Translations under genes and position numbers: made by a program | Notes under the pieces: generated by a model | Told to the model about the DNA's origin: nothing | The model's input: the letters and a program-made list of their open reading frames with translations, nothing else | Database searches by the model: none | Origin: Nanobdellota archaeon | GTDB lineage: Archaea > Nanobdellota > Nanobdellia > Pacearchaeales > GW2011-AR1 | Assembly: GCA_027334715.1 (NCBI GenBank) | Contig: DAHWUG010000003.1 | Location: forward strand, 1 to 64,000 | Reading direction: 5' to 3' | Length of the DNA: 64,000 nt | Shown here: positions 11,468-45,272 of the stretch, piece after piece | Layout of the letters: each line of letters starts with the position of its first letter | How positions within the stretch are numbered: the stretch's first letter is position 1

Positions 11468-12025
11468 ATGAGCATAAAAAATTACAAGAAAGGCCAGATG
11501 GAAATGTCTATGGGAACAATAGTTACCATAGTTCTTCTGGTGATTGTTCTTGTTTTGGGAATCTTCTTTATACAAAAAATCTTCAACTCTGGTTCAAATG
11601 TTATTGACCAAGTTGATTCTTCTGTTAATGGTCAACTAAGCACATTGTTTGGTCAGGATCAGACAAAGCAGATAGTTTTTTATCCATCTAATCAAATGAT
11701 AATAAACAAGGGAAGTTCTGGCGGGTTTGCTTTTTCCTTAAGAAACACTGACAACACTAATGGAGTTTTTTCTTATGATGTTTTTGTTCAGGAAATCGGT
11801 TCAGATTGTACAATGACCAAAGATGAAGCAAATAACTTAATCATTCTTGGAGGAACAGGGGCCAATATAAACATACCATCAGGAAGTTTCCTTGAACAGG
11901 GGATACTTGTAAAGTTTAAGATCCCTCCCTCAGCGCCTTTGTGTGATATCAGATACGGAATAGACGTTCAAAAAGATGGAAATACTTATATTCCAACAGT
12001 AAGTGTTGATTTAACAATAAAGTAA
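11468..12025 (+). CDS. Secreted/pilin-like protein with prepilin-like N-terminus
   Basis: MSIKNYKKGQMEMSMGTIVTIVLLVIVLVLGIFFIQKIF. Confidence 0.7.
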   Translation: MSIKNYKKGQMEMSMGTIVTIVLLVIVLVLGIFFIQKIFNSGSNVIDQVDSSVNGQLSTLFGQDQTKQIVFYPSNQMIINKGSSGGFAFSLRNTDNTNGVFSYDVFVQEIGSDCTMTKDEANNLIILGGTGANINIPSGSFLEQGILVKFKIPPSAPLCDIRYGIDVQKDGNTYIPTVSVDLTIK

Positions 12026-32926: not shown

Positions 32927-33043
32927 TGTTTTTCCAAACAGAACAATATTTATATAATTACTCTATACTTCATAATAACAATACTTAAAAGTGGAGTATT
33001 GCTTTTTAAAAAAGCAGGATTAATATTTCCGCGCATCATAAAA

Positions 33044-33769
33044 ATGCTTGTAAAACTTGAAAACCCGCTTCTTTTGTCGAGGATTGTTGATGTAATATCT
33101 GAGATAGTAGCAGAAGTCAGGATAAAAATCAATGAAAATGGGTTAAGCATAGATGCAATGGACCCTGCAAATGTGTCAATGGTTCATTTTGTCCTTCCAA
33201 AAAGCTCTTTTTCAAAGTTTGAAACAGGTGCAGAAGTTCTTGGAATAAACCTTGAGAACCTGAAAAGGATACTTAAGAGATCAGGGCCAGGAAGCTCTCT
33301 AATACTAGAAAAGCAGGACAATTACCTCAATATACTTATACAGGACAAGATAAAAAGAACGTTCAATCTTAGCCTTATTGAAGTTGAAAGTGAGGAAAAA
33401 GAAATGCCAAACCTTGAATTCAGCTCTGTTGTTGAATTAAATTCCACTGATTTAATTGACTCAATTGAAGACTGCGCTGTTGTTGCAGATGCATGCGCCT
33501 TTGTTGTCAAGGATAGCAAATTTATTATTGAAGCAAAGGGACTAAACAGCGCAATGTCTGAATTTTCAGCAGATGAGGCAAAGATTTCTGCAGAAAACTG
33601 CAAATCAAGATACAGCCTGGAATATCTGCAGAAATTCGTGAAGGCATCAAGGCTCTCTGACAAAACAGTTCTCCGTTTTGCAGATGACCACCCATTAAGA
33701 ATGGATGTAAAAAATGATTTTCTTGAGCTGTCATTTCTTCTCGCGCCCCGTGTCGAAACCGAAGATTAA
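33044..33769 (+). CDS. pcn: DNA polymerase sliding clamp (PCNA)
   Basis: GLSIDAMDPANVSMVHFVLPKSSF...LRFADDHPLRMDV...FLLAPRVE. Confidence 0.95.
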   Translation: MLVKLENPLLLSRIVDVISEIVAEVRIKINENGLSIDAMDPANVSMVHFVLPKSSFSKFETGAEVLGINLENLKRILKRSGPGSSLILEKQDNYLNILIQDKIKRTFNLSLIEVESEEKEMPNLEFSSVVELNSTDLIDSIEDCAVVADACAFVVKDSKFIIEAKGLNSAMSEFSADEAKISAENCKSRYSLEYLQKFVKASRLSDKTVLRFADDHPLRMDVKNDFLELSFLLAPRVETED

Positions 33770-33805
33770 AACAAGATTTATAAACAAAATTTTCTTGTAT
33801 AAACA

Positions 33806-34585
33806 ATGGAAAAGAGGGGCCAGGTGACTTTTTTTATTATCATTGCAATCATAATAATTGTGGCAGGCGTTCTTGTCTATTTTTTTGTTCCAAAAGCTTC
33901 AACACAGACAACTTTTGATGTAAAAAATCCGCAGGGTTTTATACAATCATGCCTTCAGAAAACAATTGAAGGAAGAATAACGACTCTTTCTCTTCAGGGA
34001 GGAAGTCTAAATCCTGAATTTTATTTTACATACGAAAACAACAAGGTGCAATATCTTTGCTACACAAATGAATATTACAGCAAATGTGTTGTCCAGCCAC
34101 CAATCCTTACGCAGCAATATATTGAGTCAGAAATAAAAGATTCAATTTCAAGCGATGTCAGTTCGTGCTTTGACAGCCTGCAGCAGAGTTATAAAAACGA
34201 TGGCTATGTTCCAAGCCTTAAAATAGGAACAACAGTTGTGGAAGTTCTTCCAAACAAAGTTGTCACAGATTTTCAAAATTACACACTAACTGTAACAAAG
34301 GGCTCAACATCCACTTACAATTCCTTTAGTGTTGTTTTGAACAATAATCTTTATGAATTACTGGGTATAGCTAATAATATTGTTGAATGGGAAGCAACAT
34401 ACGGCGATGCTTCAACATCAGCATACATGACATATTACGAGAATTTGAAAGTTGAAAAAATGGTCCAGAATGACGGAACAAAGATTTACATCTTGACAGA
34501 CAGGAACACAGGAAATAAATTCCAGTTTGCATCAAGAAGTATTGTATACCCTCCTGGCTACAGTTCAGGAGTCACATCAGGTTAA
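33806..34585 (+). CDS. Prepilin-like membrane-anchored secreted protein
   Basis: MEKRGQVTFFIIIAIIIIVAGVLVYFFVP. Confidence 0.7.
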   Translation: MEKRGQVTFFIIIAIIIIVAGVLVYFFVPKASTQTTFDVKNPQGFIQSCLQKTIEGRITTLSLQGGSLNPEFYFTYENNKVQYLCYTNEYYSKCVVQPPILTQQYIESEIKDSISSDVSSCFDSLQQSYKNDGYVPSLKIGTTVVEVLPNKVVTDFQNYTLTVTKGSTSTYNSFSVVLNNNLYELLGIANNIVEWEATYGDASTSAYMTYYENLKVEKMVQNDGTKIYILTDRNTGNKFQFASRSIVYPPGYSSGVTSG

Positions 34586-34601
34586 ATAAAAGAGATAAAA
34601 A

Positions 34602-36407
34602 ATGGCAAAAGAGTGTGATTTAAGCATAAGAGAAAGAAATTATGTGATTAGCAAAAAGAAGTTATTAACTATTTTTCTAATAGCGGGAATTTTGGCATTA
34701 ACAATTTTATTCTTTACAAATAAAGTTTCTGCAGATACACCTGCAAATTCATATTGCTGCGAAAAATTACAAGGCGGTGGATGGTGTCAGAATGTAAATG
34801 ACATTTCTTTGTGTGCAACAGGAAATGGATTAAGCACTCCTGCACCAACTTCATGCCAGTCAACAAGCTATTGCAGGCTTGGGACATGTGTTAATCCCCA
34901 GGAGGGTACATGCTTGCCAAATGTTCCATCACAGGTTTGTCAGAACAGCAAGGGAACATGGTTTGACGGAACTCCTAGCACAATTCCTCAGTGCAAGCTT
35001 GGATGCTGTTTCATTGGAGACCAGACAGCATTTGTCACCCAGACAAGGTGCAAGAATTTTGCAGGTGTTTACGGAGTGAATACAACATTCAGGACAGATA
35101 TAACAGATGAAACAACATGCATTGAAAGCGCAAACCCTCAGCAAATGGGCGCTTGTGTTCTGGATAATGGCGTGACACGAAACTGCAGACTTTTGTCAAG
35201 AGGTGATTGTCAGCAGCTGCAAACAGCCTCTTCAGGTAATACAACTGTAGAATTCCATGAAGGCCTTTTGTGCACTGCAGAAACCCTGAACACAGAATGT
35301 GCGCCTACAAAAAATACAGAATGCGTCCCTGGACAGGATCAGGTTTATTTTGTTGACTCATGTGGAAACATGGCAAATGTTTATGACTCTTCAAAACTAA
35401 AGGACCCAACATACTGGACAAACATAATTGATCCTTCTGCAAGCTGTAATCCTGGATCAAGCAATGCCGGCTCTTCTTCATGTGGCAACTGCAACTATCT
35501 TGCAGGAAGCACCTGTAAACCATACCAGAGAGGAAACCAGCAAACACCTAATCAGCCAAGCACTGGAAATTTTGTATGCGCTGATTTGAGCTGTCATTAC
35601 AATGGGAAGGTTTATTCTCAAGGCTCAAGCTGGTGCGTAACGAATACGCAAGGGGCAAGCAGCAATTCTCCTGGAAGCGAATATGCGGTGCAAAGATGCT
35701 TCAATGGAGAAGTCACTACAGAATTGTGCGACCCTTACAGGAACCAGGTTTGTCTTCAAGGTTCTCTCAACGGAAGCAGCAGCAGTTTTCCTGTTGCGGA
35801 ATGCGCTGTAAACAGATGGGAGGATTGCACTGTGCAAACAAATGAGCAAGACTGTTTGAACACTGACCAAAGAGACTGCAAGTGGGTAAATCTGACAAGC
35901 GCTACAGATGAAAATGGGAATCCTGTTGTTGTCAACAGCAACGGAACTCTCGTTCCTCAAGGCCAAGGACAGAAATTCTATGTGGGAACAGTTAATGTCG
36001 GGGGATTTAGTTTACAGTTAACAAAGGAAATTGGCGCTGCATGCGTTCCAGAATATTCTCCAGGATTTGTTTTCTGGAACGGCACACAGGACAGCAAAGA
36101 TAGTGGGTTGGCAAGTCCCCAGGCTATATGTGCACAGGCAAACCAGAAATGTGTTGTCAAATTCACAAGAAACGCAGTTGGCGGCTTTCTTGGGATTTCA
36201 AGCTGGTCATGCCAGAGTGGTTGCGAATGCGTCGGACTTTCCAAAGGAGCTCATCTGCCAGACATTAATGCAGTCTCACAGTGGATAAACCAAAGGATGG
36301 GGATGTGTGTTTCCATTGGTGATTGCGGCAACAAAACAAATTACATTGGAAATCCAGGATATAATAGTAATATCAACAATTTTGTTACAATATCAAAAGG
36401 TCAATGA
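34602..36407 (+). CDS. Large Cys-rich secreted protein
   Basis: N-terminal TM/signal; dozens of Cys. Confidence 0.7.
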   Translation: MAKECDLSIRERNYVISKKKLLTIFLIAGILALTILFFTNKVSADTPANSYCCEKLQGGGWCQNVNDISLCATGNGLSTPAPTSCQSTSYCRLGTCVNPQEGTCLPNVPSQVCQNSKGTWFDGTPSTIPQCKLGCCFIGDQTAFVTQTRCKNFAGVYGVNTTFRTDITDETTCIESANPQQMGACVLDNGVTRNCRLLSRGDCQQLQTASSGNTTVEFHEGLLCTAETLNTECAPTKNTECVPGQDQVYFVDSCGNMANVYDSSKLKDPTYWTNIIDPSASCNPGSSNAGSSSCGNCNYLAGSTCKPYQRGNQQTPNQPSTGNFVCADLSCHYNGKVYSQGSSWCVTNTQGASSNSPGSEYAVQRCFNGEVTTELCDPYRNQVCLQGSLNGSSSSFPVAECAVNRWEDCTVQTNEQDCLNTDQRDCKWVNLTSATDENGNPVVVNSNGTLVPQGQGQKFYVGTVNVGGFSLQLTKEIGAACVPEYSPGFVFWNGTQDSKDSGLASPQAICAQANQKCVVKFTRNAVGGFLGISSWSCQSGCECVGLSKGAHLPDINAVSQWINQRMGMCVSIGDCGNKTNYIGNPGYNSNINNFVTISKGQ

Positions 36408-36425
36408 TAAAAAATAGTAATTAAG

Positions 36426-38882
36426 ATGATAATACAAACAAACAAAAAAGGAATGAGTTTCAAGAATAAATCTCTGGCATTGTTTCAGGCAGCAACAATT
36501 GTTCTCAGCATAATTGCATTCACTTATCTTGTTGCAATGACTATACCAAGTGTGAGTGCGTTCCCACCTGGACAATGTGCAATAATTGATAAAGGGACAT
36601 CTACAGAATCATATTGGCAAATGGGAAGCAATAATATGCTGAGCTGTGTTACAGGACATTGTAACCCACCAACAACAGACACGTTCACTGAAAATAATTT
36701 TTGTGTTGTATGGCTTGGATGTGGTACATCTCAAGGAGGTTCACATTGCAGCTCAATTTGCAGTCAGCAAAGTGATGGCTCTTGGTCAGTTAAATCAAGT
36801 GCTTTAGGATCTTGCCCTGCAGCTTCACCTTCTAGCAATTCAAGAAATCTACTCGATACTGCAAATACAGTTGTGGATACAGCTAATAGTATTACGAGTA
36901 TTCCTACTAATGCGGGGGGAATAAAGGATATTTTAAAAGGTATAACATCAGGGGTTACATCTGATGTTAAGAATCTTAAAGGATTTACCTTCAATGCGCC
37001 CAACCCGTCATTCCTTGATAATTTTGCTAATCCAAATCCTTATACAGGGGTTAAGGGTTGGATTTTTAACCCAACTATAGCGGGGAAATTGAGCATTGCA
37101 AATATTGTCGCGACAGCTGCAACTGCAGCAGGACTTTATGCTGTTACACAATGGGCTTTTGGAAAAGCAGGAGCAAATGCTGAATTTTCACATGCAGCAG
37201 GACTGGGTGTTGGTGCAGGATATTTTGCAAGCCAGATAGTGTCAAAACTTGGAATAAAAATTCTTGGATTTGGAAGCACAGGGGTGGGAGTTATAGTTGG
37301 GATAGCTGTTTTATTAATTTCATGGAAAAGTGTAAGATACCAAAGCTATCAATTCAACTGTTATCCATGGACGCCGCCAACAGGGGGGCATGATTGCTCC
37401 AAATGCAATAATGGCCAATTGCCATGCACAGAATATACTTGCAGAAGCCTTGGACAAGGCTGTGAGTTGGTGAATCAGGGAACAGGGGAAGAACTTTGCG
37501 TATGGAACAACAGCAGAGATGTTACTCCTCCTATAATGCAGCCATGGTTAGATATCCTTACTCCAGGGTACAAGTATACGCCAGACAATACATTATCTCC
37601 CCCTAATAATGGAGTAAAGATTGTGCCTTTGAACGACAATAACGGATGCATAAATTCAAGCAGCTCCCTAACATTCGGAGTAACTACAAATGAGCCTGCA
37701 ATATGCAAATGGGACACAGACAGCAGCCTCAATTTCTCAAGTATGAATAATTTCTTCGACGGAAGTCCTGTTGCAATCTACAATCACAGCCAGATGCTTA
37801 CTCAGTTGCCTGATGCAAATGCACTTGCTGCAGAAAACGCAACAATTGAGAACGGAAACAAGTATTCAATCTATGCAAGCTGCCAGAACACAAATGGGTA
37901 TGCAGATGTAGGAGATTTTGTTTTCAAGTTCTGCGTAAACCCAAGCCCTGACACAGAAGCGCCATTGATAGAGACAACAAGCATACTTAACGGAAGCCCT
38001 ATAGAATTCAACACAAGCTCTGTAAATCTTAGTGTTTTTGTGAAAGACAGTTATCCTGTTAATTGCAGATGGAGCAGCAATGACCAGGATTACAGCACAA
38101 TGGAAAATAACATGACCTGCCCTGAAAGCATTGTCCAGGTGAATGACCAGGGACTTTACCAGTGCAAGACGACACTTAATGGTCTCATTAGTTCCCAGAA
38201 CAACACTTTCTATTTCAGATGCCAGGACACTTCTCCTCAGCAAAATAAGAATTCGCAGTCTTATGCTTATACTCTTATAGGAACACAGCCATTGATAATA
38301 ACCTCTGTTGGTCCTAATAGCACAGTAATAAATTCAACAAATGTCGTAAAAGTGACGCTTACAGCAACTACTGCTGCTGGTTACAATCAAGGAGACTCTC
38401 AATGCTCATTCAGCACCACAGGAAATACAGGAAGCTATGACACTTTCTTCAGCGACGCAGGAAATAATTTCAACAATTACCAGCATTCACAGGACGTTTA
38501 TCTTGTCCCTGGAAACTACAATTATTACATACAATGCATTGACCAGGGGGGAAATACTGCTACAAACATGACAAGTTTCACAGTCCAATCAGATACAAGT
38601 CCCCCTATTGTTGTAAGGGCATATAATGATAACAATAACTTGAAGATTATAACTGACGAGAATTCAACATGTGTTTACAATACAGACAGCAATATAGGCT
38701 GCACATACCAATTCAGCGACGGTTCACCAATGCAGAATTCACAGGGAAATGTAAACCAGATTGCATGGGATGTAACAAAGACATTCTACATAAAATGCAT
38801 GGACAGCTTCGGCAACCAGCCAGATAGTGATGCATGCAGCATAATTGCAAGCCCCTACAGCATAAGCAACAGCAATCAATAA
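36426..38882 (+). CDS. Large Cys-rich secreted protein with Ig-like segments and internal hydrophobic region
   Basis: MIIQTNKKGMSFKNKSLALFQAATIVLSIIAF; IVATAATAAGLYAV..GVGVIVGIAVLLISW. Confidence 0.7.
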   Translation: MIIQTNKKGMSFKNKSLALFQAATIVLSIIAFTYLVAMTIPSVSAFPPGQCAIIDKGTSTESYWQMGSNNMLSCVTGHCNPPTTDTFTENNFCVVWLGCGTSQGGSHCSSICSQQSDGSWSVKSSALGSCPAASPSSNSRNLLDTANTVVDTANSITSIPTNAGGIKDILKGITSGVTSDVKNLKGFTFNAPNPSFLDNFANPNPYTGVKGWIFNPTIAGKLSIANIVATAATAAGLYAVTQWAFGKAGANAEFSHAAGLGVGAGYFASQIVSKLGIKILGFGSTGVGVIVGIAVLLISWKSVRYQSYQFNCYPWTPPTGGHDCSKCNNGQLPCTEYTCRSLGQGCELVNQGTGEELCVWNNSRDVTPPIMQPWLDILTPGYKYTPDNTLSPPNNGVKIVPLNDNNGCINSSSSLTFGVTTNEPAICKWDTDSSLNFSSMNNFFDGSPVAIYNHSQMLTQLPDANALAAENATIENGNKYSIYASCQNTNGYADVGDFVFKFCVNPSPDTEAPLIETTSILNGSPIEFNTSSVNLSVFVKDSYPVNCRWSSNDQDYSTMENNMTCPESIVQVNDQGLYQCKTTLNGLISSQNNTFYFRCQDTSPQQNKNSQSYAYTLIGTQPLIITSVGPNSTVINSTNVVKVTLTATTAAGYNQGDSQCSFSTTGNTGSYDTFFSDAGNNFNNYQHSQDVYLVPGNYNYYIQCIDQGGNTATNMTSFTVQSDTSPPIVVRAYNDNNNLKIITDENSTCVYNTDSNIGCTYQFSDGSPMQNSQGNVNQIAWDVTKTFYIKCMDSFGNQPDSDACSIIASPYSISNSNQ

Positions 38883-39033
38883 GGAATAAAATTTTAAGGA
38901 ACAAACAGTCAATTGATGTTAAAGAGGTAACGCAGGGTCAGGTTTATTTTTTATTAGTTTAAGTTGTACTCATTAGAAAAGGAAGTTATAAATTTTATAT
39001 AAAATTTATAAGTAAGTATTTCTTGTATTAATT

Positions 39034-39567
39034 ATGGGGATGGAGAATAGAAAAAGAGGAATGAAAAAATCAGGCCAGACAGAAATTTCGTTCGGAATGA
39101 TTTTTTCAATAATACTCATAATATTTTTTCTGGCAGCTGCATTTTACGCGATAAAAGTATTCATGGGATTTAGTGACACCGCAAAAGCAGGGAAATTTTA
39201 CACTGATTTGCAGTCAGACATCAAAAACATATGGGGAAATTCTGCATTCAGCTCGGGCCAGCATGATTATATCATTCCAAGCGGGATAAACCTGGTTTGC
39301 TTTGTGGATTTTTCCTCTGATGCAAAAGGCAAGAATTCAAACCTTTACACAGATTTGAAAATGGGAACCTATACAGGAGATGAGAATCTTGTTCTTTATC
39401 CCCTAAAGCATAACAATTTTGATTCAAAGCGAATAGATTACATAGACTTGTCCGAAATAACCTCTGCGGAAAATCCATTTTGCATACAAACCAGCAACGG
39501 AAAAGTTTCAATGATTTTGAAAAAAGACATTGGACAGGATTTGGTGACAATAACGAGAGCAGGATAG
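39034..39567 (+). CDS. Prepilin-like secreted protein
   Basis: RGMKKSGQTEISFGMIFSIILIIFFLAAAFYAIKVF. Confidence 0.7.
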   Translation: MGMENRKRGMKKSGQTEISFGMIFSIILIIFFLAAAFYAIKVFMGFSDTAKAGKFYTDLQSDIKNIWGNSAFSSGQHDYIIPSGINLVCFVDFSSDAKGKNSNLYTDLKMGTYTGDENLVLYPLKHNNFDSKRIDYIDLSEITSAENPFCIQTSNGKVSMILKKDIGQDLVTITRAG

Positions 39568-39612
39568 AAAGAGGATAAATAAAAATGCTAAATATAAAAG
39601 AGGGGCAAAAGA

Positions 39613-40584
39613 ATGACAAGCGGTAAAAGTTTCTTTAATAAAAGGTTAAAGTCAGATAAGGAGGGGTTTCTGCAGATTCCATTCTCATGGCTGTTTGCAA
39701 TAGTAGTCGGGGCGATAATAATTTTCTTTGCAATATATTTTACCACAAAATTGATGGGAACAGAGACAAAGGTTTCAACAGTGGAGACAGGCAGCCAGAT
39801 AAATGTCCTTTTAAATCCTCTCGAAACAAGTTTTGGCGAGGAACAGGTTACAGCATTGTCAATACCTGTTGAAAGCCTGTTGAGCAACAACTGCGATAAT
39901 GCAGGAAATTTTGGAAGCCAGCAGATAGTTGTCTCGCAGAAAGCAGGGGGCCAGTGGACAGACATAAACATTGCGCCAACATCGCATAATAAGTATATTT
40001 TCTCAAATGACAGCGTTGAAGGAAAGAATTTCTATCTTTTTTCAAAGCCGCTTGCACTGCCTTTCAAAGTCGGCGATTTGATTTACCTGACTTCTGCAAA
40101 TGATAATTACTGCTTTGTATCTGCACCACAGACAATTCAGGACGAGCTTTCAAACCTTAAACAGGGGAATATCTTCATTGCAAACTGCCCTTCAAACAGC
40201 ATAAATGTCTGCTTTTCACAGGCATCAAACTGCAGCATCACTGTTGACCAAAACCAGAAATCTGTGGAAAAAAACGGGCATACAATGTATTATGAAACAG
40301 ATGCTTTGATGTACGGAGCCATTTTTTCAAATCCAGATGTTTACGAATGCCAGATTCAGAGATTAATGAAAAGAACTAACGAGCTTTCAACAATTTACAA
40401 TGACAAGGAAACAATTATATCGATTTCAGGGGGATGTCCTGTTGATGCCAGCCTTAGCGTAGATCTTCTAAACCTCGGAGAAGCTGCAAAATCTGTAAAT
40501 AGCTCATCTGATTTGATAAATGTAAGGGCAATTGCAGACAACGCTGGATTGGAAAACAGCGTTTCTCCCTGCCCATTATGGTAA
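39613..40584 (+). CDS. Prepilin-like secreted protein
   Basis: KSDKEGFLQIPFSWLFAIVVGAIIIFFAIYFTTKL. Confidence 0.65.
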   Translation: MTSGKSFFNKRLKSDKEGFLQIPFSWLFAIVVGAIIIFFAIYFTTKLMGTETKVSTVETGSQINVLLNPLETSFGEEQVTALSIPVESLLSNNCDNAGNFGSQQIVVSQKAGGQWTDINIAPTSHNKYIFSNDSVEGKNFYLFSKPLALPFKVGDLIYLTSANDNYCFVSAPQTIQDELSNLKQGNIFIANCPSNSINVCFSQASNCSITVDQNQKSVEKNGHTMYYETDALMYGAIFSNPDVYECQIQRLMKRTNELSTIYNDKETIISISGGCPVDASLSVDLLNLGEAAKSVNSSSDLINVRAIADNAGLENSVSPCPLW

Positions 40585-40588
40585 AATA

Positions 40589-41116
40589 ATGACAAAAATG
40601 CTGAAAAATAAAAAAGCGCAGATGAAGATACAGCAGATGGCTTTCATGCTTCTGGCTGTGACTTTGTTTTTCGCAATTGCAGGCCTGTTTGTAATTACAA
40701 TAAGCTTCTCAGGCATAAAGCAGTCTGCAGATCTTATTAAGGAGCAGAATGCGCTTCTTCTTGTTTCAAAAATAGCTGATTCGCCTGAATTTGCCTGCGA
40801 AAATGCATTTAACCAGCCTATGACAAACTGCATTGACACAGACAAGGCAATGGCCCTGAAAAAAAACATCCAGGATTACAGGAATTTTTGGGGAATTTCA
40901 GGCTTGGAGATGATATGGGTTTACCCTGATAATAACACAGGTACAGAGTGCACAACAGAAAACTATCCTGAATGCGGGGAGATAACGCTGATTCCTGTGG
41001 CAAATGGGACAGGAATTGGAAATTTTGTATCTTTATGCAGAAAAGCAATAGACAATAATTCAATACCTTACAATCAATGTGATTTGGGGAAGATCATAGT
41101 GATTTACAATGGCTAA
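40589..41116 (+). CDS. Prepilin-like secreted protein
   Basis: MTKMLKNKKAQMKIQQMAFMLLAVTLFFAIAGLFVIT. Confidence 0.7.
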   Translation: MTKMLKNKKAQMKIQQMAFMLLAVTLFFAIAGLFVITISFSGIKQSADLIKEQNALLLVSKIADSPEFACENAFNQPMTNCIDTDKAMALKKNIQDYRNFWGISGLEMIWVYPDNNTGTECTTENYPECGEITLIPVANGTGIGNFVSLCRKAIDNNSIPYNQCDLGKIIVIYNG

Positions 41117-41249
41117 AATAAGAGATAAAGCAGCTAAAGAAGATAAAAGATTAATAATGAAAATTTGGAATATGTTAAATTATAGCTTTTGCCTTGGAGA
41201 TGGGCTGACATATTGGCTTAAGTAAAGGTTATACAAATAAAAAGACAAT

Positions 41250-41765
41250 GTGCGAAGAAAAATGGGAATGGTAAACTTAAAGAAAAATCAAAATTACATC
41301 AAAAGAGGTCAGGAAGAAATAGTCGGCTTTGTAATAATTGTAGTAATTGTTTCCTTAATCCTTGTTTTTTTCCTTGTTTTCTCCATGAATAGTGTTCCCC
41401 AGACTAACAGCTATGAAGTTTCAAGCTTTTTAGGCTCTGCAATTCATTACACAACAACATGCCAGATTGATTCAGCATATCTTTCTGTAAGCGATCTTGT
41501 AAGTTCATGTTTGCAGAATGCAACATGCTCAGATGGCCAAAATTCATGCGATAATTTAAATCAGACTCTTAATACTTTAATGAAAAAAGGCTGGCGTTGG
41601 GGTCAGAATTTACCTGTAAAGGGTTATAGTCTAAATATTGTTTCCAGCTTCGGCAATGTTTTATCAGTCCAGAATGGAAATATAACATCCACTTACAAAG
41701 GAGCTCAAGAAATACTTCCTGTTTCAAGCGCAAATATAACTGTTTCTGTGACTATTTATTCTTGA
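41250..41765 (+). CDS. Prepilin-like secreted protein
   Basis: KRGQEEIVGFVIIVVIVSLILVFFLVFSMNS. Confidence 0.7.
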   Translation: MRRKMGMVNLKKNQNYIKRGQEEIVGFVIIVVIVSLILVFFLVFSMNSVPQTNSYEVSSFLGSAIHYTTTCQIDSAYLSVSDLVSSCLQNATCSDGQNSCDNLNQTLNTLMKKGWRWGQNLPVKGYSLNIVSSFGNVLSVQNGNITSTYKGAQEILPVSSANITVSVTIYS

Positions 41766-41857: not shown

Positions 41858-42211
41858 CTATATTTTCAGATTTATTGTCAAAGTGTCTATCAAAAGCTCT
41901 GGCTTGTGCCTTATCCTGTTCTTTGTCTTTTCTTCTGTTAATTCTATGAAACCAAAGCGCTCCAATAGCTTTATGTCTTCATTGACTGTCTTGAAATCCC
42001 TTCCAAGTTTCTTGGCAAGCCCGTATATTGAGCCAGGATTCTCTATCTTTAGAACATGCAAAAGCCTTGCCTTTTCATTGCTTAATAAATGCCTTAAAGT
42101 AGCTAAGCCTTCAAAGTCAAAATCCTGCTTAAGAAAAAGGCCTTTTTTCAGTATTGAGAATGCGCCGTTTGAGCTAGTTATTGTTATTTCCCTTGTCTTT
42201 GAGCCTGCCAT
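41858..42211 (-). CDS. Winged-helix transcriptional regulator (HVO_A0114-like)
   Basis: NEKARLLHVLKIENPGSIYGLAKKLGRDFKTVNEDIKLLERFGFIEL. Confidence 0.75.
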   Translation of the reverse strand: MAGSKTREITITSSNGAFSILKKGLFLKQDFDFEGLATLRHLLSNEKARLLHVLKIENPGSIYGLAKKLGRDFKTVNEDIKLLERFGFIELTEEKTKNRIRHKPELLIDTLTINLKI

Positions 42212-42641: not shown

Positions 42642-45272
42642 ATGAGATTAAATTTTAAGAGAATTTCTGCTTTAGTGGCAAGCGCTTTAATGCTTGGCAT
42701 GACTGCTGGAATTGCATCTGCTGCAAATTACCCGGCTCCTTTTGTAACAAACGGAACAGCTAATGTAGCTATTGTTTATGGTTCTGGAGCAGCGCTATCA
42801 GATAGTACTGCTGCAGGAAGCATTGCAACAAGCCTTAGTAGTTTTGTAAGCGGAGGGAGTTCAACTGTTAATATAACAGGAGAAAATGCACCTTTATTTT
42901 CAGGTTCATCTCCGATTTACTTGAATAGCTCATTGACTGCTGTTAAAGGAACTCTTACTTCATCAAATTTACCAACTGTTTTAGCAACAAGCACTTTCAA
43001 CGATGGAAGTGTTTCAGCTACAGTAACTCCAACCCTTGTAATTAGCACTGGTTCTGGAGGAGTAAATTCAAATAATGAAGTAGTATTCGTTAAGCCAACA
43101 GGATCAAGCGATCCTGTAGATGGGCTTAGTATGAGCACAACTGCAGGTTCAGGACTTTACAATATTACAGTAGGCTTTAGTCAAGCTGTTAATTTCACAT
43201 CATCTACAGCTTCTGGTCAAAGCTTGAATTTATTCGGGAATAACTATTATGCAAGTCCATTGAGTACTTCAACGCAACTTGTTTTATACAAATCTGCTCA
43301 GACTTTGACTTTAAGTCAGGGTGGAAGTGGCAACACAACAGCTACTGCTACGATAAATGGAGTAAGCCATACAGTACAGCTCATTAATGCAGGAACTTCA
43401 TCTGCTACAATATCTGTTGACGGAACAAGCCAATCAGTTAATGTAGGAAGTTCTGTGACAATAAATGGAGTTAGTGTTGCGGTAACAAGTGTCCAGTCTT
43501 CAACAGCTGGAGGAAACACAGCTACTGTTCTTGTAGGAGCTAACAAGCTTGTATTCAAGAACGGAGGAACAGTACTTCAAGGAGATAACAGCATTCCTAT
43601 AACTGGTACGACTGCTTATTTCACAGGTACGCCAACAAACCTCACACAGTTAGTTGTTAATGTAGCTGCAACTACAAATAATGACAACACTGTTTTATCA
43701 GGACAATCATTTGTTGACCCCGTGTTTGGAGGATTTCAATTCACATATGGTGGATTGACACCTTCATGGAACTCTGGAAGCAGTGATAGTGTAATTATTG
43801 GTACTGATGGAACATCAACAAACCAGATTACAATGACTCCTCTCGGAGGAAGTTCTGCTTCATCATTTGATTTTGCATCAAATAGTAGTTCTTTGACAAG
43901 CGGAGTTTACAATCTGACAACAATTAATGGATATCCCTTGCAGGTATATGAGGGAAGTAACCTCACACAGAATAGCTATGCCATAATTGGAAGTCCTAAT
44001 GAAAATTATGGATATCTTATCCTGGTTTCAAGTGTTAATACTGGAACCGGAGCAGGTACCTCTGGAGGAGATTCAGTATCAGTCAGTAATGTATTAGATC
44101 CTTCAAAAGCAATAGGTATTTCCTATAGTGGAAATTATAAGGGTTTAATGACAATGCCTGATGGAAGTCAGTATACCTTTACATACAACGGAAGCGGTTC
44201 AAATGGATGGATATCCTTAAAATATCCAACTTCAATTGAGTCTGCAGGACAATATGTATTATATCCAACAATACAAGCAGCTGGAAATGAAATGGTAGGT
44301 GTTTATGCAAATCAGACCATCAATTTAGCAAATACCGATGGAATGGGTAACAATGTAAGTGGTTTATTGATTCCAAAAGGAAATAGATATACTCCAACCA
44401 CTGTTTCTTACAATGGTGTAGCTAATGGTGGAAGTAACTGGACAATTGGCAGTAGTCAACTTGTTACGGGAAATGCATCATTAGTTACTACTGTTAATGT
44501 AACAGTTGGTCAACTCAAATATGCATTAACAGGAAGTGCAACAGCTAATAAAACATTAGTACAATTATACCAGCCTGGTACAGGCACACTTATAAGCAAT
44601 CCAGCGGTGGTTGTATTTGAACCAAAGTCAAGCGACACAAATGATAATGGATATTACAACGCCATAATTGTTCCTACACAATCTACAGTAAGTGGAAGCA
44701 CTACTTATGTTGGAACAGGATCTACAGCTTATTTCACGCAAAGTACATTATATGGGCCATTACCCCTTTCTAGCAATACAAAATTGTCAGAATGGATGGA
44801 TGGGTATGGAGCTCTAGTAAAACTAGATACTTCAAACTCAAACTATAACATAATGACTTTGTCAATACCTGATTCCCAATCTACAGCAAATCTGTATGTT
44901 GGTGCTGCGAGTTCAACTGTTTCAAGTGGTAATCTTGGAAATGTCCTTGTAACAGACTCACAAGTAAGCACGGTCGCGTCAAAAGACTTGGTCGTTGTCG
45001 GCGGAAGCTGTATTAATTCAGCTGCTGCTGCACTCGTCGGTGGGGCTTACTGCGGATCTGCATGGACTGCTGCAACAGGCATCGGTTCAGGACAGTTCTT
45101 GATAAAGGGTTACACAAGCGGAATACCTGGTAACAGTTTTGCGCTTCTTGTAGCAGGTTATGAAGCAGCAGATACAACAAATGCTGCAAATTACTTGACA
45201 CATTACACTGTTGATACAAGCAAAGCATACAGTGGTACTTCTGGTACAACTGCAAACTTGATTGTGTCCTAA
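42642..45272 (+). CDS. S-layer protein
   Basis: Signal peptide; ANYPAPFVTNGTANVAIVYG N-terminus; 876 aa, Ser/Thr/Gly/Asn-rich, Cys-poor; strong SD. Confidence 0.85.
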   Translation: MRLNFKRISALVASALMLGMTAGIASAANYPAPFVTNGTANVAIVYGSGAALSDSTAAGSIATSLSSFVSGGSSTVNITGENAPLFSGSSPIYLNSSLTAVKGTLTSSNLPTVLATSTFNDGSVSATVTPTLVISTGSGGVNSNNEVVFVKPTGSSDPVDGLSMSTTAGSGLYNITVGFSQAVNFTSSTASGQSLNLFGNNYYASPLSTSTQLVLYKSAQTLTLSQGGSGNTTATATINGVSHTVQLINAGTSSATISVDGTSQSVNVGSSVTINGVSVAVTSVQSSTAGGNTATVLVGANKLVFKNGGTVLQGDNSIPITGTTAYFTGTPTNLTQLVVNVAATTNNDNTVLSGQSFVDPVFGGFQFTYGGLTPSWNSGSSDSVIIGTDGTSTNQITMTPLGGSSASSFDFASNSSSLTSGVYNLTTINGYPLQVYEGSNLTQNSYAIIGSPNENYGYLILVSSVNTGTGAGTSGGDSVSVSNVLDPSKAIGISYSGNYKGLMTMPDGSQYTFTYNGSGSNGWISLKYPTSIESAGQYVLYPTIQAAGNEMVGVYANQTINLANTDGMGNNVSGLLIPKGNRYTPTTVSYNGVANGGSNWTIGSSQLVTGNASLVTTVNVTVGQLKYALTGSATANKTLVQLYQPGTGTLISNPAVVVFEPKSSDTNDNGYYNAIIVPTQSTVSGSTTYVGTGSTAYFTQSTLYGPLPLSSNTKLSEWMDGYGALVKLDTSNSNYNIMTLSIPDSQSTANLYVGAASSTVSSGNLGNVLVTDSQVSTVASKDLVVVGGSCINSAAAALVGGAYCGSAWTAATGIGSGQFLIKGYTSGIPGNSFALLVAGYEAADTTNAANYLTHYTVDTSKAYSGTSGTTANLIVS

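What the first reader, a model, noticed from the sequence alone, without database searches (positions are those of the whole stretch)
33806..41765. Multi-gene prepilin-like plus Cys-rich secreted cluster: candidate uncharacterised surface apparatus
Seven consecutive plus-strand ORFs sit between PCNA and the S-layer gene. Most begin with a short basic segment and a G/A-Q-x-E/x motif followed directly by about 20 hydrophobic residues: KRGQVTFF, KKSGQTEISF, DKEGFLQIPF, KKAQMKIQQM, KRGQEEIVGF. These look like class III prepilin signals. Two members are very large Cys-rich exported proteins (601 and 818 aa). No pilus ATPase or platform gene is seen in the window. This could be a set of pseudopilins with adhesin tips used for host or surface contact.
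Basis: partly seen in the sequence, partly recalled or inferred. Interest (0 to 1): 0.72.

Follow-up and report, generated by a model that had tools for sequence, protein, structure and literature searches.

The report
Conserved pilin-like adhesin gene cluster
A tiny archaeon and most of its relatives carry, between a DNA-replication gene and the gene for their protein coat, an unnamed block of genes that looks like a membrane-anchored 'sticky' surface complex built from pilus-type subunits, and some relatives keep it even though no pilus motor could be found in their genomes.

Summary
In detail: seven plus-strand ORFs (here A-G) lie between PCNA and the S-layer gene. A, D, F and G have a basic leader, [G/A]Q and a long hydrophobic helix; E is a looser match; B and C are Cys-rich with ordinary Sec-type signals. 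Comparative genomics adds: (1) PCNA-A-B-C-D-E-F-G-HTH-S-layer is an old, ordered block; A is in 99/100 genomes of the order and 197/240 sampled across the phylum. (2) B and C are halves of one ~1,200-1,350 aa protein; 67 of 69 stand-alone A genes sit directly upstream of it, and in two families A, B and C form a single polypeptide. So A+B+C is one modular, N-anchored adhesin-like molecule. (3) D-E-F-G is a separate ordered quartet of small prepilin-like proteins. (4) The window's genome has a prepilin peptidase and a complete T4P engine on other contigs. (5) Several highly complete genomes lack detectable pilus ATPase and platform but keep the peptidase and the block. No Pfam, NCBIfam or PDB match. 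Best reading: a minor-pilin/tip-adhesin-like complex, possibly able to work without a pilus engine. Pilin fold and cleavage remain unproven.

The parts
33806..34585 (+). gene A, 259 aa: class-III-like leader MEKRG|QVTFF, N-terminal TM helix, extracellular-type body with 4 Cys; N-terminal domain of the A+B+C adhesin-like unit
   Evidence: (Q6, C49, C85, C94, C121 invariant in 19 homologues)
34602..36407 (+). gene B, 601 aa, 44 Cys, Sec-type signal; matches the N-terminal half of the ~1,200-1,350 aa BC protein of relatives
36426..38882 (+). gene C, 818 aa, 29 Cys, Sec-type signal, internal hydrophobic segment 275-305, weak Ig-like (Big_13) character; matches the C-terminal half of the BC protein
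39034..39567 (+). gene D, 177 aa, prepilin-like (KKSG|QTEISFGMIFSIIL), first of the D-E-F-G quartet; related to E by profile
39613..40584 (+). gene E, 323 aa, looser prepilin-like N-terminus (DKEG|FLQIPFSWLFAIVVGA)
40589..41116 (+). gene F, 175 aa, prepilin-like (NKKA|QMKIQQMAFMLLAVTLFF)
41250..41765 (+). gene G, 171 aa, prepilin-like (IKRG|QEEIVGFVIIVV)
33776..33805 (+). archaeal TATA-like box (TTTATAAAC) within the 30 nt before the A start codon, conserved in most relatives; suggests a leaderless A-B-C transcript
39004..39033 (+). TATA-like box (TTTATAAG) within the 30 nt before the D start codon, seen in several relatives; suggests a second transcript D-E-F-G
41858..42211 (-). 117 aa HTH regulator-like gene (PF25212 HVO_A0114), conserved between G and the S-layer gene; found in 8 related loci
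42642..45272 (+). S-layer gene (PF05124, 28.3 bits), flanking the block also in distant families
32999..33769 (+). PCNA gene; a PCNA lies upstream of A on the same strand in all 27 loci that hold both (gap 26 bp to 8.4 kb, 37 bp here)

Best explanation
The block encodes one envelope complex. A+B+C is a modular adhesin-like surface molecule, anchored by A's N-terminal helix and carrying a Cys-rich region (B) and Cys/Ig-like repeats (C) outside the cell. D, E, F and G are four small prepilin-like proteins that, after peptidase cleavage at [G/A]|Q, would bundle with A through their N-terminal helices in the membrane, as the minor-pilin priming complexes of type IV filaments do, and present the A/B/C adhesin through the S-layer. 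In genomes with a T4P engine the complex may seed or cap a pilus; in engine-less lineages it would stand alone. Shown: the block, its conservation, the A-B-C fusion, the N-terminal motif, the peptidase and engine distribution. Inferred: cleavage, helix bundling, pilin fold, adhesion, passage through the S-layer.
For: N-terminal motif far above control ORFs. Gene order A-BC-D-E-F-G conserved in several families, with PCNA upstream and the S-layer gene downstream. B and C profiles map to the N- and C-halves of one ORF in relatives. 67/69 stand-alone A genes are followed by B/BC; A-B-C is one ORF in families f56 and f38, and in those ORFs only A's helix remains as a hydrophobic segment, which places A's body on the same outer side as B/C. 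Prepilin peptidase present in nearly every genome. D/E and F/G are related by profile comparison, D/E beyond the helix. The layout parallels PilHIJK + PilC/PilY1 and modular pilins (PMC10191384).
Against: No significant sequence or PDB match to any pilin; best for D is pilin PilE1 at E=0.1. AlphaFold2 bodies are mostly below pLDDT 50. None of the five window proteins has Glu at +5 of the predicted mature protein. E has the motif in only 12/27 homologues. No step has been tested in the laboratory.
Confidence: 0.55

Rival explanations
1. The block simply encodes the minor pilins and tip adhesin of the ordinary type IV pilus whose engine lies on contig C3; it works only with that engine.
For: The own genome has ATPase, two TadC-like genes and about seven pilin-like genes on C3; 98/100 genomes of the order have a T2SSF platform gene and 99/100 have A.
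Against: In genomes of good completeness without a detected engine the block or its D-E-F-G part is intact: G247 (100%), G310, and in part at contig ends G245 and G143 (100%); D-E-F-G in G201 (96%), G154 (98%) and G289, E-F-G in G173 (100%). These are draft assemblies and profile searches can miss divergent engines.
Confidence: 0.27
2. The proteins are uncleaved N-anchored membrane proteins that tether or pattern the S-layer; the [G/A]Q motif reflects common descent of an anchor, not peptidase processing.
For: An S-layer-like gene follows the block also in distant families (L109, L111, L112, L119). Leaders are very short (MKKGQ...), as an N-in anchor would be.
Against: The Q, usually with G or A before it, is among the most conserved residues of the N-terminus of A, F and G, and a type IV prepilin peptidase is retained even where no pilus engine was found.
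Confidence: 0.1
3. A substrate-capture or sensing complex comparable in role to the Sulfolobus bindosome (prepilin-type binding proteins held at the surface).
For: Prepilin-like signal on a large extracellular module; precedent for peptidase-processed surface proteins of this kind in Sulfolobus (my knowledge; papers located, PMC4858521).
Against: No solute-binding-protein domain in any member and no dedicated ATPase or platform in the cluster.
Confidence: 0.08

Closest known systems
Minor-pilin priming/tip complex PilHIJK with PilC/PilY1 (T4aP) and GspHIJK (T2SS)
   Same: Four small prepilin-like proteins encoded in a row next to a large, Sec-secreted, adhesin-like protein
   Different: No detectable sequence homology; no Glu5; in the window the large protein is two genes plus a prepilin-like third (A); the block persists in genomes with no detected engine
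Modular pilins (Streptococcus sanguinis PilB/PilC)
   Same: In families f56 and f38 a prepilin-like N-terminus (A) is fused to large adhesin-like domains in one polypeptide
   Different: Far larger (about 1,000-1,306 aa), different domains; separate genes in the window's genome
Archaeal type IV pili (census PMC4858521)
   Same: Class-III-like leaders, prepilin peptidase of family A24 in the genome
   Different: No ATPase or platform in the cluster; the main text of that census does not use the word DPANN, and for one ATPase clade it reports nanoarchaeal ATPases without identified cognate pilins
Sulfolobus bindosome (bas)
   Same: Possible peptidase-processed surface complex that is not a typical pilus
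   Different: No sugar-binding proteins and no ATPase or platform genes in the cluster

Membership tests
Archaeal type IV pilus system | Subunits with class III (prepilin) signal | tested here: met
   By motif only: A, D, F, G strongly, E loosely
Archaeal type IV pilus system | Prepilin peptidase in the genome | tested here: met
   G000:C2:30250, 43.4 bits; 24/25 in the second set
Archaeal type IV pilus system | Assembly ATPase and platform protein | tested here: inconclusive
   Present elsewhere in the own genome, absent from the cluster, and not detected in several other genomes that keep the block
Archaeal type IV pilus system | Pilin fold: long N-terminal helix plus globular beta domain | tested here: inconclusive
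   Single-sequence AlphaFold2: helix confident, body not; no PDB match by sequence
Minor-pilin tip complex (HIJK + PilY1) | Four small prepilin-like genes in a row beside a large secreted adhesin | tested here: met
   Gene order in window and other families
Minor-pilin tip complex (HIJK + PilY1) | Sequence homology to H, I, J, K or PilY1 | tested here: not met
   No Pfam/NCBIfam match above cut-off; best PDB hit of D is PilE1 at E=0.1
Minor-pilin tip complex (HIJK + PilY1) | Glu5 in all but the capping subunit | tested here: not met
   No Glu at +5 in A, D, E, F or G of the window (sequences, mature residue 1 = residue after G/A)
Minor-pilin tip complex (HIJK + PilY1) | Physical location at a pilus tip | not testable with these tools
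   needs imaging or biochemistry
Modular pilin | Prepilin N-terminus and adhesin domain in one polypeptide | tested here: inconclusive
   Such a polypeptide exists in families f56 and f38; in the window A, B and C are separate genes, and the pilin fold of A is untested
Sulfolobus bindosome | Solute-binding proteins with class III signal | tested here: not met
   No such domain in A-G

The most novel reading that the evidence does not exclude
A prepilin-type surface complex, widespread in one DPANN-like phylum, that needs only a prepilin peptidase and no pilus ATPase or platform: its helices assemble in the membrane on their own and hold a giant modular adhesin through the S-layer; where a pilus engine exists the same complex serves, or once served, as a pilus tip.
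Probability: 0.33. Interest if true: 0.85.

Novelty: new variant of a known kind. Interest (0 to 1): 0.66.

Why it matters
How ultra-small archaea hold on to other cells is a leading open question, and few conserved candidates are known. This block is nearly universal in its order, lies next to the S-layer gene, has no family name in the libraries searched, and comes with a clear prediction: A, B and C should act as one molecule, because relatives fuse them. If it works without a pilus engine, prepilin-type assembly without an ATPase would need explaining.

Tried and rejected
AlphaFold2 on A and D alone gave low-confidence bodies; no fold search was run because it would be meaningless. PF04021 (class III signal) finds nothing in the genome, but it rings in only one of 14 control genomes, so this says little. 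The idea that the peptidase is kept only for this block was rejected: the own genome has another row of small ORFs, some prepilin-like, upstream of the peptidase gene, and some engine-less genomes have other prepilin-like ORFs near theirs. The idea that D-G derive from the C3 pilins was tested by profile comparison: mostly only the hydrophobic helix aligns; G reaches 92% with one of them over 64 columns. An attempt to count engine losses was dropped: no species tree was available.

Full report
OBSERVATION. The seven ORFs are present as stated. A, D, E, F and G have one N-terminal hydrophobic segment preceded by a short basic leader; B and C have Sec-type signals, 44 and 29 Cys, and 7 and 15 N-glycosylation sequons. 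No member has a Pfam or NCBIfam match above cut-off. An archaeal TATA-like box sits within the 30 nt before A and D and is conserved before A in most relatives compared, which suggests two leaderless transcripts, A-B-C and D-E-F-G.

MORE THAN CHANCE. Among ORFs with an N-terminal hydrophobic segment in the loci fetched, K/R...[GAS]Q at the junction occurs in 78/78 A, 23/28 D, 12/27 E, 21/26 F, 23/23 G, against 21/323 others and 5/91 B/C. The 'others' include real pilins, so the control is conservative; the homologues are related and a few loci overlap, so the counts are not independent events. In A the Q is invariant in 19 aligned sequences down to 34% identity.

A CONSERVED BLOCK. A was found in 54/57 relatives (some of these by a longer paralogue only), 99/100 genomes of the order with completeness of 85% or more and 197/240 genomes drawn from the phylum (at E<=1e-5 these include more distant paralogues). 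PCNA lies upstream of A on the same strand in all 27 loci that hold both (26 bp to 8.4 kb); in the order a primase-like gene lies beyond it; an HTH gene and the S-layer gene follow G. D, E, F, G follow BC in the same order in loci of other families. F is single-copy where found, 82/240 (it is short and diverged, so this is a lower bound).

A, B AND C ARE ONE MOLECULE. In most relatives a single ORF of about 1,000-1,400 aa follows A; the B profile matches its N-terminal half and the C profile its C-terminal half. [A+BC] units are often duplicated in tandem. 67 of 69 stand-alone A genes are followed by B or BC within 1.6 kb. In families f56 and f38, A, B and C are one ORF of about 1,000-1,306 aa (11 counted, a few from overlapping or truncated loci). 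Those fused proteins have only A's helix; the BC signal peptide and internal hydrophobic segment are gone, whereas unfused BC proteins have their own N-terminal signal and often an internal segment. The simplest reading is that A's body lies outside the cell with B/C. C has weak Ig-like character (Big_13, best E=0.002, in 4 of 8 homologues).

D-E-F-G. Four small proteins with one N-terminal helix and a Cys-containing body. Profile comparison links D with E (97%, 81 columns, beyond the helix) and F with G (94%, 61 columns). AlphaFold2 without alignment predicts for D a helix from 20 to 67, confident only to about residue 40; for A, helix 3-27.

ENGINE AND PEPTIDASE. The own genome has a prepilin peptidase (C2:30250), a T4P ATPase (C3:50030), two TadC-like genes and about seven pilin-like genes around them. 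Across the phylum sample 53/240 genomes lack a T2SSF hit. From 19 genomes chosen because they lack T2SSF and carry A or F, plus 6 controls, 16 also lack a T4P-type ATPase hit (only the ubiquitous ~770 aa PilT-like protein or weaker hits): G036, G034, G143, G174, G245, G247, G281, G310, G322, G333, G319, G292, G173, G201, G154, G289. All 16 keep the peptidase. Of these, G247 and G310 carry A-BC-D-E-F-G, G245 and G143 part of it at contig ends, G281, G322 and G333 the fused A-B-C, G036 A+BC, G201, G154 and G289 D-E-F-G without A-BC next to it, and G173 E-F-G. The genomes were picked for lacking T2SSF, are mostly drafts, and absence rests on profile searches; G215 shows a platform without a detected ATPase, so ATPase detection is not perfect.

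MECHANISM. The closest working analogy is the minor-pilin complex that primes and caps type IV filaments, with PilC/PilY1 or modular pilins as adhesin (PMC10191384). It fits the layout, not the sequence: no homology, no Glu5. Membership in that family is therefore not claimed. Retention without a detected engine suggests that the complex has a role of its own, but other prepilin-like genes also need the peptidase, so peptidase retention alone is weak evidence. Adhesion to a host is inference from domain type and from the life style expected of such small genomes.

LIMITS. Taxon names were not available; 'DPANN-like' is my judgement from genome size, PCNA, primase and the S-layer gene. Literature searches found no description of this block, but subscription papers and arCOG tables were not searched.

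Noticed in passing
L080:2494-7069 (own genome C2:26493-31068): A second row of about seven small ORFs, several prepilin-like (e.g. KKAQIGETMTWVFATIII, KRGQELSTNAIIMIVIG), ends in the prepilin peptidase gene; no such row was seen beside the peptidase in the engine-less genomes looked at.
   Followed up: partly
L051:6936-8840 (own genome C2): 634 aa paralogue of A with the same N-terminus (KKGQVTVFIIIAV); a 600-690 aa homologue occurs in most genomes of the order.
   Followed up: no
window 11468-12025 +: 185 aa prepilin-like ORF (YKKGQMEMSMGTIVTIVLLVIVLVLGIFF) weakly similar to D.
   Followed up: no
L116:7628-8182, L117:6688-7383, L118:6617-7469: In engine-less genomes the D-E-F-G genes are followed by one to three tiny (85-117 aa) prepilin-like ORFs (e.g. 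KKAQGLSLNTIVIAALVLIVLVILIVLL), candidates for a main subunit.
   Followed up: no
window 41858-42211 -: HTH gene (HVO_A0114 / Csa3-like) kept between G and the S-layer gene in relatives; possible regulator of block and S-layer.
   Followed up: partly
G084 C15, also G030, G031, G032, G041, G054: T4P ATPase ORFs of about 1,000-1,070 aa, in several of which the ATPase match is split in two, as an intein or insertion would do.
   Followed up: no
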